DNA of 64,000 nt from Trebouxia sp. TZW2008 (lineage: Eukaryota; Chlorophyta; Trebouxiophyceae; Trebouxiales; Trebouxiaceae): the NCBI GenBank assembly GCA_002118135.1, contig BDIU01000119.1:88357-152356 (forward strand), read 5' to 3'. The notes beneath the pieces are model-generated. The model had not been told where the DNA came from. It searched no databases and was given only the letters and a program-made list of their open reading frames with translations. The translations under genes and the position numbers were made by a program. This document shows, one piece after another, positions 1 to 64,000 of the stretch (position 1 is the first letter of the stretch; every line of letters starts with the position of its first letter).

Positions 1-3000
1 TAATACCGCCTGCTGAGGCGCACACCATTTTTTGTTCTATGTGCTGCTTGCAGGCATGCCCACGACATCTGACCCATTTGCTACTTCCAGGGCCAGATGG
101 CAAGGAACACAACAATTATGGTGGCTAACAGTCTTTGTTCAAAAGAAGCGTACAGTATGCTTTCACATGCGCAACAGCAAGGGAAAGATAAAGGACAGAT
201 GCAGGAGCTCACCCATTCACTGATGCCAGTGCCTCCTGTGAACCAAGGCCTGGTGTGAAGGAACAAAGCGCTCATGGTATGTGCTTGCAAAAGAGCAGCC
301 ATGGTAGCCAGCAGTTTCCAGTGAACAGAAGAAGAGCAAAGAAGAGAGAAGACTGGAAAGGCAGAAAATAAAATGCAAGAGCTCACCCATTTACTGGTGC
401 CAGTTCCTCCTGTGAACCAAGGCCTGGTGCTGAGGAACACAGCGTTCATGGTATGTGCTGCTTGCAAGCGTATAGCCATGGCAGGCAACAGATTGCAGTG
501 AACAGAACAAGAGAGGCAGAAGAAAAGAGAGAAGACATAGAAAGACAGACAACAAAATGTAAGAGCTCACCCATGTGCTGGTCCCAGTTCCTCCTGTGAA
601 CCAAGGCCTGGTGTGAAGGAACAAAGCGCTCATGGTATGTGCTTGCAAAAGAGCAGCCATGGTAGCCAGCAGTTTCCAGTGAACAGAAGAAGAGCAAAGA
701 AGAGAGAAGACTGGAAAGGCAGAAAATAAAATGCAAGAGCTCACCCATTTACTGGTGCCAGTTCCTCCTGTGAACCAAGGCCTGGTGCTGAGGAACACAG
801 CGTTCATGGTATGTGCTGCTTGCAAGCGTATAGCCATGGCAGGCAACAGATTGCAGTGAACAGAACAAGAGAAGCAGAAGAAAAGAGAGAAGACATAGAA
901 AGACAGACAACAAAATGTAAGAGCTCACCCATGTGCTGGTCCCAGTTCCTCCTGTGAACCAAGGCCTGGTGCTGAGGAACACAGCGTTCATGGTATGTGC
1001 TGCTTGCAAGAGAGCAGCCATGGTGGCCAACAGCGCTAGGCCCGGAAGTGTGCTGATGAGGGGCCGCGGTTTATGCCTGTTCATGGTGTCAAGAGGCGCC
1101 ACTAAGCACGCTGAAAGGCAGATTGCCATAGCCTGAGCATCAATGGTTTGCAACTGCAGCACAGACACAGCACAAGTGAAATTGATGCACAGAACAGCTG
1201 CTGATGAGGGGCACTGGTTTGTGCCTGTTGATGTCGTCAAGAGGCGCCACTAAGCACGCTGAAAGGCAGATTGCCATAGCCTGAGCATCAATGGTTTGCA
1301 ACTGCAGCACAGACGCAGCACAAGTGAAATTGATGCACAGAAGAGCTGCTGATGGGGGGCAATGCTTTGTGCCTGTTCATGGTGTCAAAGGACGCCACCA
1401 AGCAAGCAGACACGCAGATTGCCATGGCTTGAGCATAAGCAGTTGTCAGCTGCAGCACAAGCACAGCGCAACTGGACAGAAGAAGAAGAAAGGAAGACAT
1501 TGGAGAGCACTCATGATGGCAAGCATCACAAGCGGACCCTCTATAAGTAAATGCAACACAGGATGAAGTTAGGGTGTTCAGGGTTTAGGGTTGAACCATA
1601 AATTTAGTCAAGGGCGGATGTGCACCCTGATTCAGAAATCAGCTGTCCAAGCAAAAGCACAGATTTGCTCATTGTGATTCAGCGGCATCAAGTCTATGCC
1701 CTCTTTAGGAGGTAGCAGCTGCATCAGTGACTAGCTTGTGCAACAGTGAGGTCACAGAGAGTTTTGAGCCACTAGGGACATTGTAACTTGATGGGTTTTT
1801 GAAGTTGCTGCCATGCTTGAGAGTGCTGAGCCATCACAGAAGAAGCTGGGCCCCTTGAGCTTGCCTAGCATGGGTTGTGAATGCATGCATGAATGAATGC
1901 ATGAATGAATGCATGCATGAACGAGTTCATGAATGAATTGATGGAAGAATGAAAGTATGAGTTGACAAATGACAGTGTCAATGCGCCAATGGGGCTGTTT
2001 ACATACCGCCATGCTGGAGAATGACGACCCATCCAGGAAGAAGCTGGTAGCAGTTGCCTCGGCCACAATGCACTCGTATATCACCAAATACTGCAGCCAG
2101 CAACTGTAAGCTTCTAACATTTTTGTTGTTTGAGATACACGCATGCAAATAATTGCCATTAGAACGACCGTGCAAAACAGTTACTCGCAGGATTGCAGCA
2201 CATGCTGATCATTTGAATCCATTAGAAAACACTCATAAAGACACTGTGAATACCATCAATCCTTGGCAATGCCTCATGTATGCCTTGACTTCTGACCCTG
2301 CCAGAATAATTTTCTTCCTATGACAGAGACTAAGACCGCACAGCCTCAATTACACCAGCTGCTGAATTCTTCACACACCATGCCATACAGTGCGCATGCA
2401 GCAAAAATTCTGCCATGATCGTACCACTCATGGTAATCAGAAACATGTGCAGATGCTTACATGAATAAAGCAGTCCGCTGCTGATGATGCAGCACCACAG
2501 CCATTTGATGTGACTCAGACATACATTCCAAAGAAAAACGCTAAATTTGTACAGTTGGCAGACATTTCCTTGATGTATAGAACAGGCAGCACAGAGTGCT
2601 CAATGTTGTGCATTGACTGGACGTATGCATGCAAGGTAGCTGCTGTCCAACAAGGCGAGCAAGTTAGCATGATTGTGCAAGCATACCTTGAACAGGGACG
2701 ACATCATGGCATGGGATGCTTTGCCAACCCTGACGAAACTGCACACACCTGCAACAGCATGAAACCATTTGTTTGCATGACTGCTGACATGGCAGCTGTC
2801 TTGGCTGATGGCTTCAGACCTGTGATTGCAAGATGGCTAATGCAGCATTGGCATCAGCCGACGGGCTGTCAATGGTACAGGTCTGTGGCTGTCTGATTGA
2901 CTGCAGAAGAGGTGTGAATGCATGACGGCTGATATAGCAGTGGCGTCAGCAAGAGACTGCTGAAATGTATGCTTGTGGCAGAAACCTGTGGCTGTTGACA

Positions 3001-6000
3001 TGTGATTGCATGATGACTGATACAGCAGTGGCATTAGTAACAGACTGCTGAGGACAGTGTTTACAACACAGGTCTGTGGTTGTCTGGCTTACTGTAGAAG
3101 ACATGAGATTGTGTGATGGCTGACACAGCAGTGGCGTCAGCAAGAGACTGCTGAAATGTATGCTTGTGGCAGAAACCTGTGGCTGTTGACATGTGATTGC
3201 ATGATGACTGATACAGCAGTGNNNNNNNNNNNNNNNNNNNNNTGATTGCATGATGACTGATACAGCAGTGGCATTAGTAACAGACTGCTGAGGACAGTGT
3301 TTACATCACAGGTCTGTGGTTGTCTGGCTTACTGTAGAAGACATGAGATTGTATGATGGCTGACACAGCAGTGGCGTCAGCAAGAGACTGCTGAAGACCA
3401 CACTTGCGACAGAAGTTTTGGGTGTTGACTTGTGATTGCATGATGGCTGATACAACAGTGGCATCAGTAAGAGACTGCTGAACATTATGCTTGTGGTGAG
3501 GATCTCAGACTGCATGTATTGTAGGGCAAAGGCGTACGCAGTCACTGAGTTGAAAGAGCTGATCATCTGATGCTGAAGGAAGGTGGCTTGCATGCGCATC
3601 TCAATCAATTTATTGATGCCTTGATGACTATAAATGGTCCAAATTAGGATAGGACCAGTTTGGTTGGAGACGATTGATTGCTCCAGTACGTACCTAGCTG
3701 GGCCTGCTGAGCCTGTCTAGAAGGCGTTCTGGATGATACCGATGCCGGAAGTCAAATACAGATGACACGAACATTGAAAGCTCGTTGCGTTAGTTACTGG
3801 CAGCCTCTGATGGAACAAGGCAAGTCTGAGAAAATGCAGGGAACTGTTGATCACAGTGTGTTCATGGACATTGATTCTGTGGTGAAAGCTGCAGTCAATG
3901 TCCATGAACACGCAGCTGAATGATCCTCATCCTCTGCATAGGTCCTCAGCAGCAAACAACGGCAAACAAGCAAATGGCAAACAAGATGCACAGGGAGCAA
4001 TATGCAAAGGCAGCTGACGTGCTTCAAACCCTGATCAGCATCACCATGCAAGAAGAAGAAGGAGGAGGAAAAAGAAGAAGATGCCGCGTAATGACCAAGA
4101 ACAGCTGACCTGCCACAGAGCCGTGGAAATCCCATCAGTCTGTCAAGCAAATGAATAACAGAGAAAGAAAAAAAGAGATTGATTTTCCCCCCCAAAAAAC
4201 AGACTGAGTGATTTTTCATCAGCATGCAGCAGACCTAAGCAACTCAAGATGGACAGGCGGCATTCTGGCTCAGAAACTGTCTGTTTGGCAATCAACAGAC
4301 AAGATTAAGTACTCTTGTCAGCAGAGGCATCAGTGCTGACTGCCATGTTGTTTTACTCTTGGCTTTAAGAACTTGACCATTATGCATGGGGACGGTCCTT
4401 TCATTGTTTTTGTGTTGACATTGCATGTGGCGTGATTGGAAAGTACTGAAGGTAGCAACAAAGGCAAGCGCAGGTTTGATGTTGACAACAGGCGTAACAT
4501 GTGGCAGCATTTCCATTGTCTGGGCAGCAGACCTGCCACAGAGCCATGGATTGTGGACAGTGCTGCAGCAATGACTGCAGCTTTTGCCCCAATAGCCATA
4601 CACAGTTGAGCATCGCCGTTGGCAACTCAAGACAATTGAGGTGCAAAGACAGCTTTTTGGGCTGCCTTTGGAAGCAACAGCTCCCAGTTTGTGCCTGATG
4701 CGCACAAGATGCATAAGAGGGTGGGGAGCAGACCTGCGACAGAGCCATGAATGGTGGACAGTGCTGCAGCAATGAATGCGTCTGTTGTCCCAACAGCCTA
4801 CACATTTGAGCATCACCTTGTGGCAACTCAAGACATTTCAGATGCAAAGACAGCTTTTTGGGCTGTCTTTGGAAGCAACAGCTCCCAGTTTGTGTTTGAT
4901 GCGCACAAGATGAATAAGAGGGTGGGGAGCAGACCTGCGACAGAGCCATGAGTGGTGGACAGCGCTGCAGCAATGACTGCATCTGTCGCCCCAATGGCCA
5001 TGCCCACATCAGCTGCTGAGAGAGCTGCCAAGTCGTTGATGCCATCACCACAGAACATGGTCATCATTCCCAGCCCCTGCAATATGCAGTGTAGCTGAAA
5101 ACACTGACCAGAAGGATTTCAAGCACTGGCGATGACAGAGCTGCCAGGTCATTGATGCCGTAGCCACAGAACATGGTCATCATCCCCCAGCCCTGCAATA
5201 TGCAGACAAGAAGTCAGAGCCGAACATCAAACGCCTTGGTGATGGAAGATCTTAGGCATGCCGTTCATGTTGATGGGGTCACATCAGGACTGTGAGGGAG
5301 CATAAAAATACAGTGTGACTGTCTGTTACAGATGTTAGGCAACGAGGGTCAACAAGACATGGAAGACATGTACAATATCTGAACAATCTCAGCTAGCCAG
5401 CAAACATTCAAGCTTGGTTACCATGACAACCTGAAATTTGGAAGGTGAAAGATATGACAATCAAGCATTGACAGTGTCACAGCCCAGTGTAAAAAGACGT
5501 GCAGATGCATGCTTTGTACCCATGTGATATGCATGACATAACGGAAGCACCTAGGTACACCAGCATCAAATGCAATAAGCAGCTTGAACAGCAGTCATGG
5601 TCATCATCAGCTCATATAGATAGGCAGGAACACTGGCAAGGGCATACCGGTATGAAGCGTGGGCGTCCATTGAACAGCTGATGGATGCCATGAACGCTCA
5701 GCAGATTCATGACTTGGCCTTTCTGATGCGGCTGCATGCGAGAGAACACCACTGCATTGCGCATGACCGTTTCCAGTAAGGATAAGTCATGATGCTGCAG
5801 CATGTGTTCAAAGGCATTGCCAGTCACAGCACATTGCACCTGCCCCTCTGCTAGGGCTGTGAGTGCGTTGGAGGCCTCTAAGGTCTCATGACTCATGGTC
5901 AGGAACCTGAGACCCTCCCAGGAGGGCTCAGGGGCGGCAGGGGGGATGGAGATGGAGAGGGGGATGGCAGGGCGGCCGCTGGGTGACAAGACGAGGTGTG

Positions 6001-9000
6001 GGGCTGAGGCGGGGGGCACTTCTTCTTCTACTGATGGTTTCGGAGTATGGCCGAGGAAGAAGGTGCCAAGCCGTGCCAAACCAGTGGCGTGGAAGCGCTG
6101 TGTGGACGAGTGATGACTGGTGCTGTCCGCTGCATTGGTAGACTGAGCTGTGAAGAGACTCAACAGCCTTGACTTGACTCTGCTGAGTCCAGATGTGGTC
6201 GGCTGAACACGCTGTGCACGCTCCGGCTGAGTTTGACCTTCTGCAGGGTCCTGAGCTTCCAGCCAATCTGGCAACCCAGACTTGAGGCTTGCAACCTGAC
6301 TGGGGTCTTTTTGAAGCTCAGCGTGCTCAGCATGGTCATGCTGTGCATGATGTGAGGGGGCATCAACCTGGAGGCGGAATCGTGACTTTGTCTTCCTAGG
6401 ACGCATGTGCTGCCTGTGATGACCATCACTCTGATTGTCTACACCAGTGGGGGACGGTTGCTGCTGACCAGTAGACAGTGACTCTGTGGGACGAAGCAAG
6501 GGAAGCTCTTGACTGTGCTGCTGGCTAGATGCTAAACTTTGACTTGGCAGCTGATGAGTGCCTGAAAGCTGGTTTGTCAAAGCTGACTTCATTGCCAGAG
6601 CATCATGCAATGTTGGCAGTGTGTGCTGATTGCTCAACTGCTTGAAGCTTCTGCCAGTGGATAGCATAAGCTCAGACTGGCTCTGGCTAAACCAGTCAGA
6701 GGGTGCTGTCTGAAGCCGGTCAGCAAACACATCCTGCTCAGCTGGAACATCTGGATGAGCCTGCTGCAGATCAGGATCATTCCCAAGATCCATGCTTGCT
6801 GGCTGATCTTCTTGAGTCATTGGCAGTTGCCTCAGAGAGGCAGCTCGCAAGGCAATTTTAGCAGCAGCTGTGAGGGGCGAGTTCATGGCTGACAGCTCAG
6901 TTCGTAACTCAGGTAAGCCTATGGTGTCTATGACCACCACTTTCCCTTGCAGTGGGATCATGCCAACATCCCTGGCCACTGCAATGGCTGTGTGGTGGTA
7001 GTCACCCGTGATCATCATTGTCCGCATGCCACCTCTGCAGAAGCAGTGACCACTTCAGCAACCACCTGAGTGAGGATCGTCCTTTGTTGAATGATGCACG
7101 AGTTATGCCAGTTGGTCAAACCCTGCAATTACATGCCATTACACCCAACGCACTGATTTACAAGATGAGCTGCAAACAAGTGCCCTTTTGACTTTGACAA
7201 GTGTGTTTGAGTGGTGCAGATGCAGCATGCTTACGCTCACACTCATATCACAGTGATGCAGTCAGGATGCCTGCAGCTCAAAAAGCACAAATGACAAAGA
7301 CACTACAGCTGCACAGGCAACGACAATTCTTACTCATCTTGCACTTCAGTGATCGTTGCCTTAGAGTCCTCCCTGATGCTGTTGGTGGTGACTACCAAGC
7401 TCAGCAGTTCCATGTTGGTTGCACAGCCCTCAATCTGATGCTGTGTCATGCGTGACAGATCCAGCTTGTTTACGTTGGGAATGACACCTGCTGCAACAGC
7501 CAGCAGACGAAAGCTTCTGGCGCTGTAGTCATCCATCACCTGCGCAGTCATTACACTCGTGTGATTTGGGAGCTCTTGTGCTGATGCTGTGTCATGCCTG
7601 ACAAGACCAGCTTGTTTACATCGGGGATTGCACCTGCTGCAACAGCCAGCAGCGGAAAGCTTCTGGCTGAAGTCATCTGAAGTCATCCATCACCTGCTCA
7701 GTCACACAGCACTCATGTGGTTGGGGAGCTCTCATGGTGATGTAGTATGACATGTGGTAAACACAAAGTGCCTACATTGGGAATGACCCCTGCTGCAATG
7801 ACCAGCAGCTGCAAGCTTAGTCCTCCATCACACACGCATTTACTGCAGTTGCGTGGTTTGGGATGCCTTCCGATGCCTTCAGGGCTCACGCAGTGTGTAT
7901 GCATGTGGCACAAGCCTCATGTCACCACAGGACAATCGGGCCATGTGTTTTGCAAAGCCAGGTGCATTTGCAGAACTATGTTGTTATGCTGTTGACTTCG
8001 CATTGTTATGGTGTCACACCGTTGACTTTGTATGAATCTGGAGCATGGCTTGTTGTCAACATTTCAGCTGGAGGTGGCAGCTCAGCAAACAGGCAAGGCC
8101 TGCAGTGCTAAATGCCGCTGTAAAAATTATCAGTGACAGCAATTGGTTAAACTTTCTAGTACATGTGCTAGGTGTGTGTGGTCCAAGTCTTGTCTCGCCA
8201 GGCTGGCTTGTTCTGAGCATCACGGTAAGGATTGGCCTGCTGAGCCTGTTTAGCCCGCGTTTACAATGAAAGAATGAATGAATCACGGTAAGGATGGTTG
8301 GGCTTGAACATCAGACAAAGCAATGTCCTTCCAACTTAATGCTGCTGCAGTGTCAAACTTGCCTCATCAAAGTTCTGAGGAACGCTAGAGGGATCCACTA
8401 GGCTCCTGATGACTGCAGGGGCACCCCTCAGAAACAACAGGGCTGACCCCAGGGGGGTCTCACTTGAGCCCACCACTGCTCCAGACCTGAGCGTTTGTGA
8501 GCTGAACTCCAGAACCCTCCTGATGGTCAACTTGCTCATGTGAGTTGTGGACTTTGAAGCAGAGCGTTTTGGCAACACCACCGTCTGCCTGTCCTGTGAA
8601 AAGACCGAGTCAGTTAGTCAGTTAGTTCAGCTTTCAGTGAGCATTTTGGCAACACTACTGCCTGCCTGTCTTGCAGCAAAGCTGTCAGTCAGTCATTCAG
8701 TCAGTCCAGCTTTGAGTGAGCATTTTGGCAACATCACTGTCTGCCTGTCCTGCAGAAAAGCTGTCAGTCAGTTGGCCAGTCATTCAGTCAGCTGGTCAAT
8801 CAGCCAGTCGGTCAGACAGCCAGTCGAACAGCCAGTCAATCAGTCAGTCAGCCGGTCAGCTAGTCAGTCATGCCAGTAACATCCTGGACAGATGACAGAT
8901 GACAAGTCAAACACTTGGCAGGAAATTTTCCTGGCTTTCTGATGAAGCCTGGCTAATTGACTCACCAGGAAACGAGCTTCCACCATTCTGAACAGGGCTC

Positions 9001-12000
9001 GCTCCAAATCATGCCCAGCAACGGTTGACTTGTCGATCATGTTCAGGCTGTGGCACGTTGCTACTGCCTGTTTGAGGCGTTCGCTCCACAGCATGGCGCT
9101 CTGCTGCATGGCTGTGAATGCGCCCGTTTCAACAGGCAGCATGCCATGAAGCTTGGCCTGCACAGATTAATCTCATCAATTGGCTGCTTCAGCAAGAAAC
9201 AAGCAAGACAGGTAGCATGCCATGCAGTTTGGCCTGCACGTATCAAGCACCACTTCAGCGATAAGAAATGCAAGCAAGCAAGCAAGCTAACAGCAGACAA
9301 AGAAAGCAACAACGCAACAAACAAAGCAACAAATAAACAAGCCAGCAAACATGCAAGCTGTCCAGCAAGCAAGCAATCTATTGCAGCTGTGATATAGATC
9401 AACCAACCAACCAGACAATAGCTCATCAACCACACAACCATGCATCACCGAAACATGCATGACTTACTGTGCTATGGGTGAGGGTCCCAGTCTTGTCAAA
9501 GCACACACAGTCAATGGCCGCTCCCCGCTTGAGCACTTCAGGGAACATCAGCAGGATCCCATTCCTCTTCAGCCTCCAACGGGCCACCACACCCACCAGC
9601 AGCATCACGGTGGGGAGCCCGGGGGGTGCAGCGTATGTGAGTGTGTCAAGAAGCCTCATGACTACGTCCCAGGGGGTTTGGGAGCGCTCGCTAGCTTTGA
9701 TCAGGTAAGGTATCAGCAGCAGCAGCTGAAGCAACAATGCAAAGGCGTACAGCCTCACAACATCCTGCATGCAAGAAGAGGTTGCAATTAACTGGAACAA
9801 AACAGTGCATAGGGGAGATAGACAGGCAAGGAATCAGTAGCAGCACCTGCAGCACAAGTGCAACGCGTGCAGTTGCACAATGTTCTGCAAGAAGGATTTG
9901 CACCCAGCACCAAGAAAAAACAGTGCACCGGAGATAGACAGATAAGGAATCAGTAGCAGCAGATCAAGCACCAATGCAAAGGTGTAGAGCCTAACAACAT
10001 TCTTCATGCAGAGAGAAGTTGCACTCAAAACAGGGAAAGTTACACTGCACAGACAAGATAGACAGGTGCAGGACCAGCAGCAGCAGCTGCAGCACTATTG
10101 CAAATGCACACAGCCACACGGCGTGCTGCAAGAAAGACTTGCACCCAGCACTGGGGAAGCAACAGCTCACAGGTGAGACACACAGGCAGGGAACCAGCAG
10201 CTGAATTACAAGTGCAATGCAAACAGCCTCAGGACATCTTGCGCGCAAGAAGAATTTGCAGTCAGTACCACAAAAGAAACAGTGCACAGGGGAGATAGAC
10301 AGGTAAGGAAGTAGCAGCAGATGAAGCACCAATGCAAAGTTGTGTAGCCTCACACCCCTGTTGCTTATGCAACACTGCGCATGGCAGTGCAGCAAAATGA
10401 TGCTGTTTGCAAAGTCACAAGGCTCAGCACAAAGCATAAGTCTGGCGCACAGACAGTGACTTGGACCATACCGGGATGAATGGGTCCTTTTCTTTGGCAG
10501 CTTGGGAGGGGGCTACTAACTGCCGCACCATCCGTCCCATGGTGGTATGAAGCCCTGTGCGGCACACCATCACCAACACCTCGTCCTCATTGTTCTCCGG
10601 GTTCCACACCTGCTTGCATCCATGACACAAAGCATGACAGCAGTGAATTGGGTTGTTTGGGGAGGGGCTACTAACTGCCGCACCATCCATCCCATGGTGG
10701 TGTGAAGCCCCGTGCGGCACACCATCACCAGCATCTCGTCCTCATTATTCTCTGGGTTCCACACCTGCTTGCACCATCACATGCACGACACCGATGTCAT
10801 GGGGTACAGGGCAAATGTGCGTTGCAGCAGCTGCCAAAGCGTGGTGGTTCAAAAGCATCTTCAGCACACCATCACCAGCACCTGATCCTCCTTATTCTCT
10901 GGGTTCTACACCTGCTTGCACCATCACATGCATGACACCAATGTAATCGGATACAGGGCAGATGTGCATTGCATCAGCTGTCAAAGCAGCCTCTGCACGA
11001 TGGTGTGAAGCCCTGTGCAGCAAATATCTGCAGCAGCTCATCTTCACTGTGTTCTGTGTTCCAGCTGTACCTGCTTGACAGAAGTTGTTTGGGTTGCTTG
11101 TGCTTTGTTGGTGGTGAGCAGATGACAATGGCAGTGAGCAATGCAGCAGCAAGCTTGCTAGCTGCTCTGTTAGTAACATGACATACTTTGATGCTCATCA
11201 GCCTGGTGCAAGAATACTTGATTATGATACACAGCCTTCTGCCATGCATGCAGATACCATCTTCTTGTCTGCAGTGACGCTATAAATTTGTTGTTGCAAA
11301 GGCATGAAGCGCATGACTCAACACCTAGATACCTGCACTGCTGGCAAGCTGATGCAGCTAATTGGGTCTTGCAAGTAATCAAGCATGAGCAGCAGGTGTT
11401 GATGTCCCATACCTGTTGCACAATAGTGCCAGCGTATATTGTGGATGACTGGTTCCTGTCAGGATGATAGTCAGCAGCTGCATCTGGAATGAAGCTGCTC
11501 TTCCTGACTTGTGCAGCCTACATGACATCGCAAGCCTGTTGCACACCTTGGACGTGGCTTTCACAGTGCAATGCGGGCACAGTATGTTTTGCATGCGCAT
11601 GACATCAGAAACCCATGTTGCATACCTTGACTGTGGCCTTGACAGTGCCATGCAGGAATAGTGTGGTTTGGAGAAAAGTTGTTGCACATGGATTCAGGCA
11701 GACTGCTTGAACTGTGTGGCAGCTGCTTAGCAGACAGTGCTGAGATTTGACCAGCTGAGCTGCGATGAGCTGTGATGAGCTGTGCTGTTCTGTGCTGCCT
11801 TATGCTGGTAAAGTTGTGTATTAACATTCAAAAGCTGCAATTGGAAGTGCTGTCAATGTAGACCATGGTGTGCATTCACTACCACTGAGCCTGAGCTGAG
11901 TTGCGCTAAGCCACGGCTCACCACGCTGCTGTAATATCTGCTCATGAGCAACCTACTGTGCTTGCTCATTTTGACACTAACATATGCGCCCCCTAGATTG

Positions 12001-15000
12001 CCTTCACCATTCGCTCCTTGCCACCTGCTGCATGTTGGCATTGCAGCAGCAGTGTCACACATGCAATACCAAAGCATGGAACCAAGTTGCTGGCACCACA
12101 GCAGCAGTCAGGAGACTGGCGGCAACTGAGTCCAAAGAAGTAAGGCAAGCAACAGAACATACTTCCCCAGAAAGCATAGCATCATTGACCAGGCACACAG
12201 CACGCAGCAGAACCATGTTGCACCTAGCTTGGCACCTTGGCAGCACATGTGCATCAATGAGGACAGCATTGTATGCTGATGATCCCATCAGTCAACATTG
12301 CAATCCGTCAAGACAGCAGATTTACCTCCCCAGAAAGCATGGCCTCATTGACCAGGCATGCACCACGCAGCAGCAGCATGTCAAACATGGCCTTGCCACG
12401 CTGCAGAACCACAACGTCTCCAGGCACAAGCCGGTGTGAAGAGATCGCTCTGACCCACTTGTCTTGCACCACAGGGATTAAGCAACGCTGGTTCACCAAT
12501 GCCAGAATCTTGCTGTGCTGCTGAGACAGTGTGATGGTGAGGGTCATGATGGCTGCTACAGAGAAGCTGATGATTAGAATTGGGTAGAAGTAGCGCGCTC
12601 TGTAGATCAGGTAAGCCACCTCCAGATTCTGCGTGGAAATAACAAATTGTTATACAGTACATATACATACAGTGTACATGCAATGCATCATTGCATCTCT
12701 CATTTGCATGCTCATCTTGACTCGCAGCAACCTTACAATGAAGAAGCGAACTTGTAAGTGAGGCCAATAGCTGCCATTTCTGCATACACTGAAAATGCTT
12801 ATATCTGGCATTGTGTTTCGACCAGCATGCGTTTGCCCCTACATGCCCTGGCGAAGCTGACTCGCAAGTGAATAAGTAGTGCAAGCCAAGTACACAAAGA
12901 ACAGGAATACATGATCCAGATGCTGATGCAACTCACACTGGACATCCAAGCAGACAAGCAACAGCAACATGTACATGGCTGCTTGAACGGTGTGCACAAA
13001 TCTTGAACCAGGCAACAGGTGCTCTATGCTGAGTACTGCTGACTCAAAGCCATCAGCCCGGTGATCCTGAACATCAAGCACATGATGCAAATGTACCTGA
13101 ATGGCGAAGAAGACCCCAAGTGAGTGCTGTCCTACATCGCGGTACATGACCATGCGCCGCGAGACATGGCGCTTGCTGGTGCCATACAGGCGCAACATGT
13201 CCCGCCGCAATTTGTGCTGCTCAAGATTGAAGATACGCCACTCAGCCCCTGCACAGCAAATGCCTCACCTTCGTACAGAGTTGCAATGACTTGAAATTTA
13301 TGCATCTGCTCATTGTATGTTTTTGAGTACGCACATGTGCTTTGCATGATGTCTGTAAGCCTTCACATCTGTCATGATATAGCGCAGGCCATATCAACAA
13401 TGCTGCATCAAAGCTGTAAGTCGCCAGATTGGTCTATCCATGCTTCTATATGCTGTACCTACTGTTTCAATGTAATGTAAAGCTTCAGAAGCTCTGTTGA
13501 TCTCGTATGGCATGTGATCGGGCATGCCTGGCAACTGCTCAAAGCCATCTGTACCTGGCACATACGCTCAAAACCAGAGGAACAGCGGCATGAATACTGC
13601 TGTTTCAGTTTGCTGGCACATACACGTAAGATCGGAGAACAAGCCGGATGTCACCTGCTGTTTCAATGTTGCGTAGAGCTTCAAGAGCTCTGCCGATCTG
13701 CTGTGGCAGGTGATAGGGCATGCCTAGCATTTGCTCAAAGCCATTTGATTCTGCTACATATGCTAAAGCCAGAGGACCAGCCGCATGTTTCAGTTTGCTG
13801 GCGCATACACGTCAGACCAGAGAAACAGTCAGATTTTACCTGCTTTTTCAATGTGGCGTAGGGCTTCAAGAGCCCTGCCGATCTGCTGTGGCAGGTGATA
13901 GGGCATGCCTGGAATTGGCTCAAAGCCATGCTTTTCTGGCACATACACATAAGACCGCAGGAACAGCCGAAAGCCACGCAGCTCTTGTGACTCTAACCCA
14001 GAGCTTGAGCGGCCCTGCATGGTTTGCAGTACTGATCAGGACAAATGCTGATGCCTGCTCACTTGTTGCTGCGGGCCAGGGTCACATTATGCAGAGTGTT
14101 TAGACCTGATACCTCAGGGAGCCTATGTGCGCTGAGGCAAGAACAGAACAGAACCGCCGCATCATAAGCAGCAACATAATCAGCATTGAAATGACATAGG
14201 GCACATGCTAGTTCATAACAGCAGCTGGACTGAGCACATGGGGTTGATCCTCAGACCTCTCAGCAATGCTTCATGCAGGTGTGCATCTTGTTGATCATGT
14301 CCAACCAAGTAGCATACAAATGCAGAAGATGCAATGCAGTAGGCAGCTCACCAGTGTGCTTTGCAGGATCTGCTTATTTGCCACTGATAGCCTGTGAACC
14401 TTCAGGAGCTGCCGCCGACCATCAAGAAGCTGTTTTGCAGCCACAACAGATTGAAGGTCAGACACAGGAAGTATCAGCAGTGTTCTGCTTTTTGCGGTGG
14501 TGCCTTGCATTGCATCTTGCAGGAGGCAGGGCATAGACTTTGAGCATCTGTGCAGATGCAGCATTGCCGTGGTATTGCATAAAAAGTTACCCGGACTAGC
14601 ACATATTGTGCCTGGCTCAAGGAACAGGGATGGAGAAGCTTGGCAGCCTGAAGAGGTGCGAGCCGCCCCAGTGACCATGTCAGGGCTCCAATGAATGGAT
14701 GGCACACCACATTGTGAACAAGGTTCCCTGAACGGCGCCTATAGCCCAGGCAATTTTGCACAACCTGTAGTGTGATGGCAAAGGTCTCACTGTTTTGATG
14801 CGGTGTCTTCGAGGTGCTACGAGCAGCTCTGATTGCTCAAATCCTTGGGCAGTTCGAGCACCTTTTCAGTTTGTTCCGCCTCAGCATTATGGTTCATGGC
14901 ACAACGCGCTCCTGCGTAACCCTGTAGCTGACATGCATGCTGTGCTCAGGTCTCAATTGGTATTGTCATGTGGCCTGACATTGGTCTGACGCTGTTTCGT

Positions 15001-27250: not shown

Positions 27251-27758
27251 TGATTGAGCATGCGCAGAAGCAGGTCGAGGTCATTTGCGATGGTCTCGGA
27301 GCATGCACAAAAGAAGTGCGATGCCTTGCAGTGCGATGCCTTGCAGGCTTGCAGCGACTGTAGCGTCATTTTGTATACACCACCCGCTGCTGGTCAAACC
27401 TGGACCGGGAGGGTAGCCCAGGCGTAGCAGGTCAAAGTGAGTCTCATTGGGATTTGTCAATCCTGACTCACTCGACGCTGCAATCACAGTCAAGCTCATA
27501 TCAAGTCAAGCTATCGAACACATAGCACCAGCAGTGATGCTCTTTCACCTGCTTTCCTTGCTGATCAACTGAGACTCCAAGCTTAGCCTGTGGCGAGCAA
27601 GCGTTGCCATCATTCCAAACACACAGGTCCAGCTGCAAACAGACTGCCGTTTGTCCACAATACAGGTAGCAGCTGTCCTGCTGTTGGTCTGGTAGTGAAG
27701 TGAGCGGCAAGCTAGCTTTAACAAGTGCAGAACGTCCCTGGGACTGCTTTCGCCCATA

Positions 27759-41875: not shown

Positions 41876-41879
41876 TTAG

Positions 41880-42260: not shown

Positions 42261-42386
42261 TCGCAGAAGATGCGACTTCAAGCTGTATGTTGCATGTGTT
42301 CCTCACTGCAGGTATTCGGAACATGCGCTGTCCAGCCACGTGCGTCATGTCTTGCATGCTGCGCGTGCCTACGCCGTAAGTTTACT

Positions 42387-48045: not shown

Positions 48046-51000
48046 CTGCAGACCGTTCAGATGTTGTCAATAGCTTCAGATGACACACGCCAAGCGCTGT
48101 GGATGCCCACCACATGCTTCTGACCAGCAGCAGACTCTTTAAAGGAGGACATTATGATGACTGTCAGAAACCCGCAGATCATCTGGAAATCAAACCTAAA
48201 ACAACAACAATCACAAATTGGCATTGCAATGACAACATGGATGATGGCAAATCAGCTCACAACAACAGCAACAGCAGCAGTAGCAGCATCAGCAGCAGTA
48301 ACAGCAGCAGCGATGACAACAACCTCGACCTGTTGCCAGTAGAGCTTGCAGAGGCCACTCAGTATACAAGTGTCTCCCATAAGGGCTGCAGGGTGGCTCA
48401 TTGGTAGAGGATAAAGGTGATGGGTGGCAAGAACCTCCTCCTTTGCATAGCACACATAATGCTCAACAGCACTGGGACAGAAAGGCATTGCAGTCACCCA
48501 TTGATCCTGGCTGACGAACGTCACTGTGAAGGAGCTCATAATCAGGAATGCAAATTGCATCATTCTCAAGATTAGCAAACGAAGGTAGTACAGGAAGGCT
48601 CACCAGTAAAGGATGAGGATGGAGGTGATGGGTGGCAAGAAGTACCAGAAGTAGGCTTCAGACCGGTACAGCCAGTTCATCTGCATGGACCCTGTTGTTG
48701 TCACCCCCAAGTCTTGGTTGTAAGGGGCCACCTGCTGTGTGAAGAACACCTGAAAGTAGCCTGCAGCACATCGGCAATGGCTTGTGTGATGTACTGCTGC
48801 ATGCATAATTGCATTGCTGTGATGCAAACATCCATTGCTTGCAAGCTATTGCAATCGCAGCTAGGGTGAGGTCTCTGGTGAGGGAAGGTCACGTGACATT
48901 TGGACGTGGGTGACGGTGAATACGCTGCTGCTGCTTGAAATCATATGCAGCATGCGGCACATCCCGGACTGTAACATTGACTGCACAGTTAAATGATTGA
49001 TCAACTGTTTGACAGACTAATTTCTTGCTTGCTTGCTTGTCTGGTTGATAGCTTGGTTGTTTGGCTAGCTTGGTTGTTTGGCTAGCTTGGTTGTTTGGCT
49101 AGCTGATCAAGTCATTGATTGATTGCCTGACTCTTTGGCTTTGCAGCTTCAGGGCAATTGCAGGAGCAATGCAAGCATAAGCAGAAGTTGCATCTCTTGA
49201 TCTGTAGCACACAGAACAGATCACCTGAAATGGAGTCTGGTAAGCTGGTCATGGTGGACTCAAAGTCTCCAAACAGCACATGACCCATCACAGCTACCAG
49301 CAACGCCACAGCCAGTATTGTGTAGCCCACATCCAGGATCCACGGCAACGCCTACAGCCACAGGATGAAGTTGACATTGGCAGTTGGGCAGTGCTTGCAG
49401 TTAGGCAAGCCTGCCCGCTTCACAATTGCTAACTGCAGCTCCGTCTTCTCAACACAGCCACCAACAATGCCACAGCTAGTATTGTGTAGCTCACATCCAG
49501 AATCCATGGTCACGCCTGCAGCCAAGACAAAAGCACTTGGACACTTTCGGCATGCTTCATCGTTGCTGTCTGCTCAGGCATATTTATTCATGATTTGGGC
49601 AAGGCGTTCATTGTGGACTCAAGGTCTCCAAACAGTTGGTGGCCCAATGCAGCCACCAACCATGCCACATGTATTGTGTAGCCACATCCAGGATGCATGG
49701 CAATGCCTGCATTCCAGGCAGAAGAATTTCGTCATAGTTTGCATGTCCAGCGCCATGGCATCTAGACGCATGCGTTGTACTTCATGACTACCTGCAACCC
49801 ACGTTCATTCACAGCCATCAGCAACGCCAAAGCCAACATTCCATATCCACATCCAAAAGTCACAGTCAAGCCCACACCTAAGGCAACCTTGATGGTTGTC
49901 TTGGTCAGGATGGAAAGGTGCTGCTGGGCAGACGGAATCTTGATTTGCGGAAGAGCAGTTGCAGCCTTGTCATTGTTTAAGTCAAGATTAGCAACAAGCT
50001 CAAGCAGGTGAGTGTCTGTGAGGAAGCACACCTTGATGGTTGTCTTAGTCAGGATGGAAAGGCGCTTTTGGGCAGACAATATCTTGATGAGCCGCAAGAT
50101 GAGCAGCTGCAGCGTGATTCCCTGGAGCGTGGTAAACAGCGTGATCTGGTTGGACATGGTGTCTACTGCAGAGTAGACAGCCGCCATGCTGTCCAGGCCT
50201 GTCTCCACGTCAGGTAAGGTCCAGCGCCCTGGCCCTCCGGGCACTTCAGCATAGAAGTCCAGGGCAGATGCTGCATGAGCACGAGGATTAGACCCAGCAA
50301 TAGCTACAAGGCATCACTCATTATGAGTAATTGCCGGGCATCAATTCAATCACCGCGTGATAAAATCAGAGAGAGGCAGTTGTGTGTAGCCTTTGCGTAG
50401 CTGGCTGTGCATGCCACGCTGAGAGCATGTCTGACAAGGTCACATACTGCATGATGCATGACAGGTGTTGCTGCTGATGATTGCAAAACAAATGCTCCCA
50501 GCCATGGTATTGAATTCCAGGACTGCTTGGTTGCCAAAGTCACGACCTACCATTGTGCACTGTAGGAGCCTTCTTGGGCAGCAGCAAACGAGCCTGAGCC
50601 GCTCCAAGAGAGTCATACACCTCATATGTGTTTTGCGGCTGAAAGTCCACCAGCCTCTCAATAAAGACGCTGTAGGTGATGAGGCAGATGAGCATGGCGG
50701 TCAGTACGCTGATATCATACAGCACCCAGGTCTCTCCAAGAGCATCCTGCATGATGGCAAAAGATCTTGATGATGGTGTTTTTTACTACTGTGCAACATA
50801 TGACAACAAAGGGCAAAGCTGCAGTGATGAGGCAGATGAGCATGGCGGTCAACACGTTCATGTCATACAGCACCCACGTCTCTCCAAGAGCGTCCTGCAT
50901 GATGTTGTACGGCGTGAACGATGGTGCTGTTGACCACTAGGCAATGCATGACGACCAATGCCAGGATGGTGGCAGTGTTGCTCGAGCATGACATGCATGA

Positions 51001-54000
51001 CACTGTACAGCTGACTTGACTAGTGACCCGTCAAGCCTCACGATGCGAATTCAGGTTTGTGGAATGCCTTTGAACTGCAAGCTTTGGGTCTGAATGCATA
51101 CGGCCATATCACGACATGTCTGAAACATACCACTGAAACCTATCATCATATCATCCTAGAAGACATGATTGACAGCAACAACAAGAGCTTCACCAGCACA
51201 ATCTTCCAGATGGAGGTGGCTTTCTGCACTCTGCCCCAAATGGCAAACCCCACAGCGGCCCCTTGGGCTGCTGTCAGCAGCACCAGCAGAATGAAGGCAG
51301 CCAGAATGGTCCTGTCACTCTTGTTGCTGGTGGATCCCAGTGTCACATCAGGCACAGCTTGGAAGTGTGTGACCACACTGATTGAACCTGCATCGCCCCA
51401 TGTGAAATCCACTCTGGCATACCTGCAACCCGCACGCTATCTTTGCTTCTTTACTATCACCACGTACATGGAATATAGCCCATTTTATTCTGTCACTGTG
51501 ATTGCTGGTAGACCCTAGTGTCACATCAGGCACAGCTTAAAAGTGGGTCACCACATTGATGGAGCCTGAGGCACCATGTGAAGTCCACCGCAGCACACCT
51601 GCAACATACTCATCTGGTTCTTCAGCTAGCTAATCAAGTGTGCCCAGGACATACAAAATTTCAGCTAGCTAATCAACTGTGCAGAGCATGAACAGCTTGA
51701 AGTCACAACGTGCAATCTCATAGACGGCAGTGCTGACTTTGCTGCCTTACAACAAAGCCGGCTTAGTGCTTGAAGCTTGATATAATGCATGTGACCATGA
51801 CAAACAGCAACGAGTATAACACGTCCATGATGATAACCAACTTTGAGGAGACATTTCTCAACCGTACACCTTGAGCTCTGACTTGAGGTCAGCAGCCGCA
51901 GCGTCAATGTATCCGCATTTGCAGTCAAACAGACTTGACTTTGACGACCGTTTGCTTTTGGCAATTATTTCTTACCCATAGATCTTGAGCTCTGAGTTGA
52001 GAGTCAGTAGCCGCAGCGTCAATGTAGCCGTGTTTGCATCAAGGTAGACCCCATCTGTCAGGACTGCCATCAACCTCTGAGAGTTATTCTGACTCAGCCT
52101 GTTGTCAAAGACAGCTGGGAAGCCCATTTCAAACCCTGGCATGCCTCTGGGGTGAAACCCAAAAGGCGTGCCGATATGAGGCTGAATGTCTGAGTCTGAG
52201 GAGGTGTTGTAGAAATCACCTGCACCAAGGGAAGCTGTACTAAGAGAAATGTGCGCTGTCAGCAGGGTGCAAGTGAGCAACAGAGCGGATGCCCATACTT
52301 CTGCGTCAGAGATGCATCAACAATACAGCGGGATAGTTGTGATTGTTTGCTGCAAGCTCATGGGGAAAAGGCTTGCTTCTGCTGCCAGAAAACTTGCTAA
52401 TGATGCTCACCTACACTGCGTCTAACAGCAGGCTTCTTTAGCACCAGAGATGCTTGCAGGTCCAAGTTTACTGCACATGATATGAGCGAGTGCCCGTATA
52501 TCTGACTGCTGCACATACAAAGCAGCATTTATAGGTCAACTGTCAACTTTGCAAGTGGACCATCTATGATCAGGCTGCTGTTGTACACACAAGTGGGTCT
52601 TGCAGAAACATAGCATCGACCTTATGCGGGCAAATTGCACAAGGGTGTGTAAATGACTTACCTATGCTCAGACTGCTGTCGTACACAGGTGAGTCTTGCA
52701 GAAACACAGCATCAACCCCATAAGGCGACAGGCCTCCAGTGGATGCCATTGGATTCACCACAATTTCCCCAGTTGCGTCATCATACACTGTAGCTGTATA
52801 TGTGCATTTGGTCTGAAACTTGGAGAAGCGGCTGTCACAGTTTTTACTGACTGTGTTCTGTGTGGTCTGCATGAGCAGCCCACCAACCACTTGATTTCCA
52901 TTCCAGCCTGCAGTGCAAACCATCCTCAGTTCCATACACTGCCCTCAGAAGCAGTCAACTGCACTCAGATGCAGGTTTGGGCACAAAACTGCATGGGCAA
53001 AGTCCATAGCCTCTGGTTGATAGCAACATCCGCAGCGCAATCACCAGACTGCCTGAATCTCATGGACAAATAGTCATTGCCATGGTGTGGCACATGCAAT
53101 CAGCCTTGTTAGCTGGCTGAGGCATGTATTATTACTCTCTCTTTAGCCAGTGGACCGCCACATGTGTTGCTGAATGTGAGACCATGCCCATGTTGTATGT
53201 GATGCACAGCAGCACTCTGCATGTGTTTGTTTAGCTCTGCTTGCCAAAGCGCTTGCACTGGCGGTAAATGCAATGAGTGATGCAGCAGTGCTGGGTGACA
53301 AAGCTTGGTCGACTTGACAAGCCCGTATGAAGCACTGATCTTACCTATAACACGGGATAGCTGCTGCTGTTCATAGGCGGCGTCTGAAGAGTTGGTGTAG
53401 TTGTACGCATTGGTGCTGTTGGCCTGGACTGTGACCACAGCTGCAGTGTAGTTCAGCGCCAACTGCATACAAGGCAATCCATTCTTGATCGCTGCACCCA
53501 GAACAAATGGGCTTGAAGACACAGCGCAGCTACTGTCAGCTGCTGTCATCAGTGCTTGTGTCTAGCAGAGGAAAAATGCAGCACGATGGAACAGCAGTCA
53601 GTAACTCTTTGCTGGTGTGCGCTTGTGGTGGGCATCTCTTTTTCCTCAAAATGGTTTGCATAGGTATCAAACCAGATGACATGTTGCTGAGGAAAAGCAG
53701 CACAAACTTGGTCAAGACTGTACAGTAAAGCAGACGTCAAACAGGACTGCCTGTGTGCTGAGCATAACACAGCTGGCAGAAGGTGTGGCACATTGGTTCA
53801 AACAGCTTTGGTCACACGCTGTGCTGTGCAACACAGAAGGCAGAGATGTTTCATCTGGTGGCTGCTGAAGCTGCAGATATCATAGCATACAATATACAAG
53901 CAGAGGACAGCCAAAGTCACTGAGGTTCTGTCGTCGGCACCGTCAGAGGACACAAAACAACTGCTGATAACGCAAGCACAACATGGAATGCAGTACAGAA

Positions 54001-57000
54001 GCAGAGATCAGACAACGTACTGAGGTGCCGTCAGTGGCACTGCATGGAGTTGACAGCAAGCGCCGCCTGCTGTCAGAAACACCATCAATCTCAGCCGTCA
54101 CATTGTCAGCCGCGACCCTAAACTCGACCCTTAAGTCACCCGTGACCTCTCTGTCACACCCTGCTGTCAGGCTTAGTGAGGCGCTTGAAGAAGAAGTACT
54201 CGTCAGGGAGGAAGTGGATGAGGAAGACGAGTTAGTAATGGAGGCTGTCACGTCTGCTTTGAAGGTATTGTAGATGTTAGTCATGATGAAGACTGATTGC
54301 TGCAGCAGGCACCAAAGATAGGTCAGTTGATTCAATGACTGACTAACTGACTGCTTGATTGATTGATGGATGGGTTTCTTGACTGATGGGTGGGTGGATG
54401 GATGGATGGATGGATTGATTGATTGATTGGTTGACTGACGGACTAAATAATTGCTTGAAACAAAGACATTCTCTAGTAGTCTTGACAGATGCACTGTGTT
54501 GCACTTCCTATACTTGAATCTCAGGCTCTGTTCTGATAGGACGCTGTTCTGACAAGAATATATAGACAGGCACTACTGATGCTGGCTTCACTTTTCACTT
54601 GCTTCACTGCTGACCAAGGTCAACAGCATGTTTGATACCATGTCTACAACTTTGTTGTATGTGATACCAATAAGCTTCAGTGCCCTGTTCCAATCAACAC
54701 ATGTATCTGAAAAGCAATTTCTGTAGACCTTTCTACAAGACAGAGATCTGCAAAGGAGCTGATGTGCTACCTGAACATAGGCTGAGTAGTCATCTATCAG
54801 CTCTTCATAGTCACCCTTGACAGTGGTGTAGGGCACAATCCAGGGTGGGTTTACTCCAACAGACATGGCCGCTTCCATCTCATAAAGCTCTGCTTGAATG
54901 CAGGACAGATTTGCCAGCAAGCCTACAAGTCGCAAACACAAGTGTTGGCATGTCAAACGCAATGTGCAGAAGACTAAGCAGGGCAAAGTTGCAGGCCAAG
55001 TAGCATGTGTTCCACCTGAGAGCAGTGGAGAAGTGTTGTCCAATGCAGCAGCATGACAGTCGTTGGCTCTTCAAGTGAGCTGCGCACTGCCTGTGCTATC
55101 AGCTGCTGCTATCCAGTCAAAGCAACAACAGTGCACGTGCTACATGTTAAGTGCTACTGAGCCTACACTGTTTGACACGCACTTCACCTGAGAGCGCAAG
55201 GGAAGTGTTGTCCACAGCAGCAGTAGTCAAGTTGTAGCTGGTGAGCTGTGCACCGCCTGTGCTGCTAGCGCTGCTGCTGTCCACTGCTGCTAGGCTCAAG
55301 TTCAGGGCACTGTTCAAGCTAGAGCTGACCATTGTGGAGTTCATCACCAAATCTGCAGGTGGACCACCACGTTTATTCTGGCTGTTTTGTAACATGAAAT
55401 TAGGCTAATTCAGGCATGTTCTCTTCAGCAGGAGACACCAGCAGCATGCCGATGCAGGCAAACAGGTGTGACTTGCAGTTTCAGTATTGCTGGTAGCTAC
55501 TGTTGCAGCAATTGTGCGGTCATGCACAAAGGTCAGCTTGTGAAGGTTGTGAAGAACTCACTGCTGCTGGATTGCAGAAGCCTCCGCCTGCCGGACGCAA
55601 CAGCCCCTGGAGCAACCCCTGACACAGCCCCTGAGATGTGGAGCTCAGCAGTCATGCTCAAAGTCAGCAGCGCTGAATCTGAGCTGATCATTGTTGACGA
55701 GTCCTGGTCAACTTGAATGACTGTAAGAGAAACAGGTGCCCAGGTCAGATTCTGAGCCGCTGCTGCTGCTGTCAAATTGGGTGCACTACCAAACTCTGCA
55801 GCAACAAAGTCCACAATACGCATTTGCTGATTGAGCAGCACAAATTGCGTTTATTCTATGCAAAACAGCGTGCAGCATGGCAAAGCACAGCATGAATGTG
55901 GAGTGCAGCGCTCAAAGCATAACACAACAAAGAGGGCAGCACAGCACAGCACAGCACGGAGCCCAGCACAGCACAGCACATAGCCCAGCACATCAGTAAG
56001 CCGGGTGAGAGCACAGCAACTCAACTCAGTGCTGCTCACTCACCTGATATGAGTCCAGCTGTCACAGCAGTGCTCAAAATGCTGAAGTCTGCAGTCAGAA
56101 TGTCACTCTGGGCCTGGGCAGCGTTCAGATCGGTAGCAGGCACCACAAAGGGAAGAGTGAAGGTAATGCTGTACTGCTGCTGCACTTGTACAAGCCTCCA
56201 GGCTGATGCCAATTGGGCATAGCTGTCTTTTGCCCTGCATAGATATGCACACTTTAAATTTTGCTCTGGGCCTGAGCAGCGTCCAGGTGAGCATCAGGCA
56301 CAACAAAAGCAAGAGTGAAGGTGATGATTTACTGCTGCTGCACCTGTGCAAGCCTCCAGGCTGATGCCAGCTGGGCGTAGCTGTCCTTTGCCCTGCAAAG
56401 AATGCACAATCAGAATCTCACTCTGGGCCTGAGCAGCGTTCAGGTGAGCATCAAGCACAACAAAAGCAAGAGTGAAGGTGATGCTGTACTGCTGTTACAT
56501 GCATACCAGCCTCCAGGCTGATGCCAAGTGGGCATAGCTGTCTTTTGCCCTGTGCAGCAAACACCTGCTTTGTACTGTGTCCCCAGAAAGACTTTGTTCT
56601 GGATTGTTTGGAGGCTCTCCAAACACAGAACTGGCTCCATATGCATCTATTAGGGTTCTGGAACCTCACAATCTGAGGAAATGCTGCTGATGATAACAAC
56701 AGCCGCAAGTACACCGCTGGTGTCTTGTGGGTGAGTCCTCACTGAGGAATTGCAGTTGGCATGAGTGTGAGCACATGCAAGCTGCTGCAGAGTTTAATGC
56801 AAGGCACAGCCTCTGTGCAAAACTGCAGCAAAGGTCTGGTAGTGCTTGAGCACTGCTTGGGGTTGAAGAGAAGAAAGTCTGTGCTGGTGGCCTCCATACC
56901 ACCGTGAACATACGCAGCTGAAGGGTGCTCTACAGGATGTTTACAGAAGCAGGTGGTGGGCACTGACAATTCAGCAATGCCCACAGTAGATTTGTAAGCA

Positions 57001-64000: not shown

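What the first reader, a model, noticed from the sequence alone, without database searches (positions are those of the whole stretch)
1..64000. Introns are filled with tandem, diverged copies of the neighbouring exon-intron junction
In four of the five genes, nearly every large intron holds partial copies of the flanking exon. Upstream copies always carry intron tail, acceptor and exon 5' part; downstream copies carry exon 3' part, donor and intron start. Units are about 50-210 bp, 1-7 copies, and decay with distance from the genuine exon. I count well over 25 exons affected. This looks like repeated tandem duplication across splice junctions as a mode of intron growth, and it leaves arrays of competing splice sites. 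The pattern accounts for most tandem repeats and most false open frames here. I know of no standard description of an intron system like this.
Basis: partly seen in the sequence, partly recalled or inferred. Interest (0 to 1): 0.88.

Follow-up and report, generated by a model that had tools for sequence, protein, structure and literature searches.

The report
Introns padded by duplicated exon edges
In this alga-like genome many introns are lengthened by decaying tandem copies of the edge of the neighbouring exon together with its splice site, which is what repeated small duplications leave behind when selection keeps one intact copy of each exon.

Summary
The pattern is real and not confined to the window. 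With junctions from a self-trained gene finder, 69 of 236 predicted exons (31 of 65 in the window) have partial copies in a flanking intron. Polarity is nearly strict: exon 5' ends upstream or 3' ends downstream in 78 of 436 tests, the opposite in 9 of 436; 15 against 2 of 166 in 80 kb held out from training. Units are mostly 65-210 bp, median 155. Copies decay like non-functional sequence (copy-exon dN/dS 0.595; 83 of 138 with frameshift or stop). Copies account for the extra length of affected introns. Best explanation: tandem duplication filtered by selection (junction-crossing units leave one intact exon), then near-neutral decay. Random placement does not explain everything: outside the window 59 of 80 loci pair exon with intron sequence against 29.8 expected, although the held-out 80 kb alone show only a weak excess (13 of 24 against 9.3, p = 0.09). 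'Decay with distance' is not supported (29 against 28). No simple Rogers-type intron-gain pair was seen; use of the extra splice sites could not be tested. A striking, apparently undescribed variant of a known mutational process.

The parts
12326..12628 (-). P5-type ATPase exon (LVPGDVVVL...LSGE), genuine copy
   Evidence: gene model; colinear with ATP13A2
12160..12218 (-). donor-type copy: exon 3' part + donor + intron start, in the downstream intron
   Evidence: BLAST pair with 12323-12381, 86%; spacing 163
10472..10609 (-). ATPase exon, genuine
10657..11077 (-). three acceptor-type copies of exon 10472-10609 at spacings 155, 302, 457
9468..9764 (-). ATPase exon with the DKTGT motif (motif name recalled), genuine
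9823..10354 (-). acceptor-type copies at spacings 120, 237, 361, 595
7334..7539 (-). ATPase exon, genuine
7581..7863 (-). two acceptor-type copies at 154 and 292
4935..5076 (-). ATPase exon (GDGINDLAALS), genuine; outside the piece compared with ATP13A2
5133..5205 (-). acceptor-type copy that reads GYGINDLAALS where the exon reads GDGINDLAALS
   Evidence: BLAST 86%; frame, alignment
4521..4793 (-). two donor-type copies at 201 and 402
929..1153 (-). predicted exon, genuine
1199..1474 (-). two acceptor-type copies, unit 148
199..849 (-). donor-type copies, units of about 184 and 174 (one further copy at 959)
13840..14014 (-). exon with donor-type copies at 185, 323, 381
13456..13783 (-). the donor-type copies of 13840-14014
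15972..16306 (-). two copies of a GH63 exon edge; counted as 'intron only' because the gene finder missed this exon
   Evidence: PF03200, two stretches; BLAST 89.5%
17194..17675 (-). three copies of a coding-looking piece ([19 protein letters not shown]) beside the GH63 exons, missed by the gene finder; not tested against Pfam
21315..21499 (-). exon with four acceptor-type copies (99-579) and one donor-type copy (131)
36197..36360 (-). exon with acceptor copy (176) and donor copies (165, 425)
40316..40473 (-). exon with acceptor copies at 178, 356, 539
49225..49351 (-). exon with acceptor copies at 164, 355
50551..50746 (-). exon with acceptor copy at 148 (50824-50904)
52662..52907 (-). exon with donor copy at 98 (52564-52621)
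56044..56234 (-). exon with two acceptor copies at 158, 315 (56264-56552)
45246..45664 (-). exon-internal repeat, periods 150 and 297 (multiples of 3): in-frame counterpart inside a coding exon

Best explanation
Segments of about 65-210 bp are repeatedly duplicated in tandem in and around genes of this genome (shown: the tandem units). Selection then decides what stays (inferred from what survives): a unit inside an exon survives mainly if it keeps frame; a unit across one acceptor leaves a truncated copy (intron tail, AG, exon 5' part) upstream of an intact exon; a unit across one donor leaves exon 3' part, GT and intron start downstream of it. The spare copy lands in the intron, is little or not constrained and decays while the exon stays, so introns grow inward from both ends (shown: decay close to neutral, polarity, length budget). 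Beyond this filter, duplication seems to hit exonic DNA more often than intronic or intergenic DNA (statistical excess shown for most stretches, uneven, cause unknown; the mutational step is inferred).
For: Polarity 78 against 9 of 436 comparisons each, p = 4e-16, and 15 against 2 of 166 in held-out sequence, p = 0.002. The intron part belongs to the unit in at least part of the cases: 43 of 74 nearest copies beat the 99% level of a random-intron null. Copies are close to neutral: dN/dS to the exon 0.595 (0.534-0.648; 129 copies), near the 0.5-0.6 I expect for one constrained and one free lineage; 83 of 138 have a frameshift gap or stop. Frame filter: exon-only loci have periods divisible by 3 in 7 of 8, junction loci 33/26/20 by remainder. 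Introns with copies are longer (668 against 346 bp, p = 1e-10) and lose the excess when the copies are subtracted (318 bp). Excess over random placement: of 106 loci in 224 kb 79 pair exon with intron, 13 are intron-only, 4 intergenic, 8 exon-only, 2 exon-intergenic, where decay-and-detection models given 79-81 such loci or events expect 61-120 intron-only and 24-48 intergenic. Outside the window 59 of 80 against 29.8 expected, odds ratio 4.7; counting only the 51 loci with a match that crosses a junction, 51 of 72 against 26.8; by pairs 107 of 156 against 57.2.
Against: The excess is uneven: absent in 40 kb of C36 (6 seen, 5.6-6.1 expected), p = 0.09 for the held-out 80 kb. The gene finder was trained on the 224 kb in which the excess is strongest, the window was chosen for the pattern, and overlapping pairs are merged into loci, which absorbs intron-intron pairs into junction loci. 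Against a null of other splice sites the intron side of the units is only modestly more alike (mostly 0.59-0.71 against 0.52-0.65; no excess in the 5 nt next to the site; 48 events), and in 37 of 58 nearest copies it is below 0.68, though their dS is only modestly higher (0.283 against 0.221). The fit of the intron part to neutral decay needs about 0.3 indels per substitution, more than the 205 gaps per 2006 differences seen in exon parts, and no setting matches both tails. Not all copies look neutral: changes unique to one copy are uneven over codon positions (0.208, 0.166, 0.254; p = 1e-9, non-independent pairs), the two most similar quarters differ 2.0-2.2 times as often at position 3 (I expect about 1.5), and copied acceptors score above the neutral expectation (median 5.3 against 4.1). 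Few very young copies are seen (6 of 81 under 5% change at positions 1-2), so the process may have slowed, or the assembly may have collapsed recent ones.
Confidence: 0.66

Rival explanations
1. Pure random tandem duplication with no exon bias: units fall anywhere, selection and slower decay of the exon half make junction-crossing ones the ones we see.
For: Polarity and frame filter follow from it without further assumption. In C36 the loci match it (6 seen, 5.6-6.1 expected). Exon-bearing pairs stay detectable longer (at k = 0.2, 0.67 against 0.22).
Against: After modelling decay and detection, intron-only loci are about 5-9 and intergenic loci 6-12 times too few in the 224 kb, and 59 of 80 loci outside the window pair exon with intron against 29.8 expected. 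One of the 13 'intron-only' loci contains a GH63 exon missed by the gene finder and a second looks coding, which widens the gap.
Confidence: 0.24
2. Compact ancestor: introns and spacers were short when the duplications happened, so nearly every viable unit had to cross a junction; introns grew since.
For: Would give both polarity and the junction excess. Among introns without a detected copy, right-polarity weak matches of score 17 or more are 15 against 6, a hint of older copies.
Against: Introns without copies have median 346 bp, and affected introns without their copies 318 bp, room enough for 155-bp intron-only units. Over all 210 junctions without a copy the right-polarity excess is not significant (means 12.43 against 12.28, p = 0.26).
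Confidence: 0.12
3. Copies are alternative or mutually exclusive exons, or selected decoy splice sites.
For: Some copies differ from the exon mostly at synonymous sites (for example the copy of C115 gene 0 exon 11, read by eye); 49 of 129 copies are open, dN/dS 0.43; codon-position unevenness in copies; acceptor scores above neutral expectation.
Against: 80 of 129 are disrupted; overall dN/dS 0.595; splice cores kept at 42 of 54 and 37 of 47, near neutral expectation; spacing has no frame preference (27/25/24); most copies hold only part of the exon (exon part at least 95% of the exon in 4%).
Confidence: 0.08
4. Rogers-type intron gain: tandem duplication inside an exon created the introns themselves.
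For: It also gives copies of exon parts inside introns, and is the best documented tandem-duplication route to introns (PMC3443670 and PMC4974935, passages).
Against: It predicts pairs in which exon end plus intron start match intron end plus exon start. None of 223 near pairs has the simple composition EI with IE; 111 are EI with I or I with IE; a few composite pairs (such as IEI with EIE, one) were not resolved. Introns gained long ago would have lost the signal.
Confidence: 0.02
5. Local gene conversion from the constrained exon keeps refreshing the copies.
For: Would explain why exon-bearing copies persist, why distance does not matter (29 against 28) and why similarity often fades at the splice site.
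Against: The mean identity of the intron parts can be fitted with the age given by synonymous sites, so no refreshing is required; this is not a disproof.
Confidence: 0.06

Closest known systems
Internal gene duplication in eukaryotes (Gao & Lynch 2009, PNAS; not read, seen only as cited in PMC3443670 and PMC4974935)
   Same: Small tandem duplications within genes, described as commonly observed in a passage of PMC4974935.
   Different: As I recall it, attention there is on exon duplication and intron creation; here most detected units cross one existing junction, and the result is intron lengthening with mostly dead copies on a defined side.
Intron gain by tandem genomic duplication (Rogers 1989, Hellsten 2011, as cited; passages of PMC3443670 and PMC4974935)
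   Same: Tandem duplication of exonic sequence, duplicated splice motifs, intron made of exon-derived sequence.
   Different: No simple EI/IE pair was found; existing introns are lengthened instead.
Tandem repeats near intron ends in plants and green algae (PMC3887541, abstract and passages)
   Same: Reports that in Chlamydomonas and Volvox tandem repeats are densest in introns and coding sequence, and more frequent near intron-exon junctions.
   Different: Restricted to units of 1-50 bp; no link to copies of the neighbouring exon or to polarity in the passages seen.
Tandem exon duplication / mutually exclusive exons (recalled)
   Same: Neighbouring exon-like copies in introns.
   Different: Those copies are whole, in frame and conserved; here most are partial and most are disrupted.

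Membership tests
Tandem duplication units crossing a splice junction | Copy is a direct, same-strand, nearby repeat that includes intron sequence beyond the splice site | tested here: met
   223 near same-strand pairs against 1 inverted; in 83 of 92 exon-intron loci a match crosses a junction (32 of 33 window, 51 of 59 outside); intron part above the 99% random-intron null in 43 of 74, modest excess over other splice sites
Tandem duplication units crossing a splice junction | 5' exon parts upstream, 3' parts downstream | tested here: met
   78 against 9 of 436, 15 against 2 of 166
Rogers-type intron gain | Exon end/intron start homologous to intron end/exon start | tested here: not met
   0 of 223 pairs with the simple composition
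Mutually exclusive / alternative exons | Copies complete, in frame, under coding constraint | tested here: not met
   80 of 129 disrupted; dN/dS 0.595; a minority of individual copies remains open
Introner-like elements | Near-identical intron sequence shared by many unrelated introns | tested here: inconclusive
   only 18 far self-matches in 224 kb; introns were not searched against the whole genome
Minisatellite arrays | Many near-identical units of 10-100 bp (range as given in PMC3887541) | tested here: not met
   46 of 81 junctions have a single extra copy, at most 5; units median 155 bp, identity median 0.84
Internal gene duplication (general) | Tandem duplication within a gene, filtered by effect on the product | tested here: met
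   exon-only periods divisible by 3 in 7 of 8 against 33/26/20 for junction loci
Competing splice sites in use | Copies spliced in RNA | not testable with these tools
   no RNA data

The most novel reading that the evidence does not exclude
A duplication process aimed at exons, with a unit size near that of a nucleosome (median 155 bp, upper quartile 178, only 4 of 79 loci above 210), is a main engine of intron growth in this lineage: exon-phased chromatin or lagging-strand replication sets the breakpoints, selection keeps the units that cross junctions, and introns accrete from both edges. The chromatin link is a guess from size alone.
Probability: 0.22. Interest if true: 0.75.

Novelty: new variant of a known kind. 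Interest (0 to 1): 0.55.

Why it matters
Long introns are usually explained by transposons (recalled). Here the stretches out to the farthest recognisable copy of the adjoining exon edge make up 22.5 of 128 kb of predicted intron sequence, and they account for the length difference between affected and unaffected introns. That makes intron growth dateable event by event, with the slowly changing exon as reference, and provides many natural tests of how much sequence a splice site needs. It also warns that gene finders and homology searches in such genomes meet many partial, decaying exon copies with plausible splice sites.

Tried and rejected
Decay with distance: tested, not found. First impression from nine alignments and the profile that similarity stops at the splice site, and hence gene conversion or constraint on the copies: kept only as a rival after the mean intron identity could be fitted by decay at the synonymous rate, with the reservations given under evidence against; sorting by low change at codon positions 1-2 had picked out unusual copies. 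Selection against or for the copied splice sites: core dinucleotides as neutral, acceptor scores somewhat above. Older remnants in introns without detected copies: no significant excess overall, 15 against 6 at score 17 or more. Exon breakpoint tied to exon length: no correlation (rho 0.16, p = 0.18, 71 events). Rogers-type intron gain: simple signature not found. Conserved-domain searches of the whole genome were looked at for adjacent partial duplicates by eye only; one clear case of the expected polarity (C87, a 3' part downstream of its exon) was seen and no count was made. First self-training run over-merged genes and stopped on an error; settings were changed by hand. Literature: eight searches listed no description of this pattern; two searches returned nothing, so the wording may have been too narrow, and most subscription papers are not held. 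No taxon was identified; 'alga-like' rests on 47 matches to the chlorophyll a/b-binding family.

Full report
What the window is. The window is the last 64 kb of contig C115 of a 68.5-Mb, 527-contig genome. It is a photosynthetic eukaryote, since the genome has 47 mostly exon-size matches to the chlorophyll a/b-binding family; the taxon was not identified. Recognisable genes in the window include a P5-type ATPase (about 5-13 kb, minus strand; closest solved structure ATP13A2), a GH63 glucosidase and a protein with Bact_surface_Ig-like domains.

How exons were defined. No annotation was available, so I wrote a gene finder that trains itself on the sequence (window plus 160 kb from C115, C1, C200, C300). 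It knows nothing of repeats. It converged on 18 genes and 236 exons with sharp splice consensus (donor CAG|GTAAG-like, acceptor TGCAG|G). It fuses neighbouring genes and missed at least one GH63 exon, but 571 residues of the predicted ATPase, taken across several predicted junctions, run colinearly with ATP13A2 over residues 42-569. Only this one gene was checked in this way.

Is it there? Yes. In 224 kb there are 223 same-strand self-matches less than 1.5 kb apart, 1 inverted and 18 far ones. Taking 60 nt from each exon end and searching the flanking introns, right-polarity hits number 44 and 34 of 218, wrong-polarity hits 7 and 2 of 218; a control against randomly drawn introns gave 4, 1, 1 and 6 of 218 as the best of eight draws, the draws including the own intron. 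69 of 236 exons are affected, 31 of 65 in the window and 38 of 171 outside; 11 of 18 predicted genes are affected. In 80 kb fetched afterwards and not used for training, right polarity is 15 and wrong 2 of 166 comparisons each; 15 of 91 exons are affected. The window is a rich example of a wider trait.

Anatomy. 81 junctions carry 138 copies (of 143 found, those aligned within 13 nt of the junction); 46 junctions have one, 22 two, 13 three to five. Spacing peaks at 140-160 bp; by locus the median period is 155 (quartiles 120-178) against 88 for 15 intron-only and intergenic loci (two loci with missed exons set aside; p = 0.003). A model with unit lengths spread evenly over 30-700 bp would have put most detected junction units above 220 bp; 4 of 79 are, so the size limit is not set by detection. 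Exon part and intron part both scale with the unit. Copies do not become less similar with distance (29 against 28).

What the copies are. Differences between exon and copy fall at codon positions 1, 2, 3 at 15.0, 13.3 and 23.7%. dN/dS is 0.595 (0.534-0.648, 129 copies), as I expect if the exon is constrained and the copy free. 83 of 138 copies carry a frameshift gap or stop. Their AG is kept in 42 of 54 and their GT/GC in 37 of 47, expectation 74% and 79%. Against pure neutrality: changes unique to one copy are uneven over codon positions, the most similar copies show a stronger third-position excess than expected, and copied acceptors score above expectation; staggered duplication times may explain part of this, and a minority of copies may be or have been coding.

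Does the unit reach into the intron? For 43 of 74 nearest copies the intron side beats the 99% level of a random-intron null, but against a null of other splice sites the gain is modest (48 events), and the most similar exon parts often adjoin dissimilar introns. The mean intron identity (0.668, 58 copies with 40 nt or more) is matched by decay of both sides at k 0.15-0.18 with 0.3 indels per substitution, though the tails are broader than any setting. I take age as the likelier reason and keep gene conversion as a rival.

Why the polarity. A tandem duplication across one acceptor must leave a truncated copy upstream of the intact exon, one across a donor a truncated copy downstream; the opposite arrangements do not arise, and units inside exons change the protein. 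In line with this, loci lying wholly in exons have periods divisible by three in 7 of 8 cases, junction loci 33/26/20 by remainder. Polarity is therefore evidence for tandem duplication and needs no targeting.

Is placement random? I simulated units placed anywhere in the same gene models, decaying with the exon constrained, and detected by the same search. For 79-81 exon-intron loci or events the models expect 61-120 intron-only and 24-48 intergenic loci, over several age distributions and indel rates; 13 and 4 are seen (of 106 loci; 8 exon-only and 2 exon-intergenic are left out). By stretch the excess has p = 5e-7 (C115 outside the window), 2e-10 (window), 5e-5 (C1), 0.04 (C200), 0.001 (C300) and 0.51 (C36); C150 and C273 give 0.10 and 0.05. 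Counting units over several junctions as junction units too, the sequence outside the window has 59 of 80 loci against 29.8 expected (odds ratio 4.7; 6 exon-only and 3 exon-intergenic loci left out); with only loci in which a match crosses a junction, 51 of 72 against 26.8; by unmerged pairs, 107 of 156 against 57.2; held-out alone 13 of 24 against 9.3, p = 0.09. So there is a real but uneven excess, weakest in the sequence least open to bias. Exonic DNA seems to be hit more often; I cannot show why.

Consequence for introns. Introns with copies (71) have median 668 bp, those without (147) 346 bp; subtracting the stretch out to the farthest copy leaves 318 bp, indistinguishable from the latter (p = 0.66). 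These stretches make up 22.5 of 128 kb of intron; by BLAST coverage 17.4% of intron bases lie in near pairs. Introns with no detectable copy show no significant overall excess of hidden remnants, so this process is a part, not the whole, of intron length here.

What was known. Tandem duplication as a route to new introns is established (PMC3443670 and PMC4974935, passages read), but its simple signature is absent here (0 of 223 pairs). A survey of 31 plants and algae reports tandem repeats densest in introns and coding sequence of Chlamydomonas and Volvox and more frequent near intron-exon junctions, with units limited to 1-50 bp (PMC3887541, abstract and passages). Internal gene duplication is called commonly observed in PMC4974935, citing Gao & Lynch 2009, which I did not read. 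I found no description of introns lengthened by polar copies of exon edges in eight searches, which cover open-access papers only.

Verdict. It is a new variant of a known mutational process, remarkable for its density, unit size and uneven exon preference.

Noticed in passing
G000:C392:167156-168562 (minus): Six matches to roughly the same 40-50 residues of PF00122, four of them within one 586-aa open frame; looks like a repeat array rather than an ATPase.
   Followed up: no
61362-61811 and 62789-63301: Bact_surface_Ig-like domains (PF16403) in two open frames of a photosynthetic eukaryote.
   Followed up: no
5648-7034: The ATPase model carries an exon of 1387 bp, most of it a Ser/Gln-rich stretch of about 400 residues, between conserved P-type ATPase motifs (motifs recalled).
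   Followed up: no
22129-22275 and 27757-27901: The longest of only three distant same-strand repeats in the window, 147 bp at 88%.
   Followed up: no
29780-30298 (plus): Open frame with a sub-threshold fungal cellulose-binding domain match (17.2 bits, cut-off 20.6) followed by a 24-bp coding repeat.
   Followed up: no
43815-45851: 679-aa open frame with a partial paralogue on contig C379 (76-87% over two short pieces) and 50 unnamed relatives in the protein search, many probably sharing only its biased composition.
   Followed up: no
all stretches studied: Few very young copies (6 of 81 nearest copies under 5% change at codon positions 1-2): either the process has slowed or recent copies are collapsed in the assembly.
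   Followed up: partly
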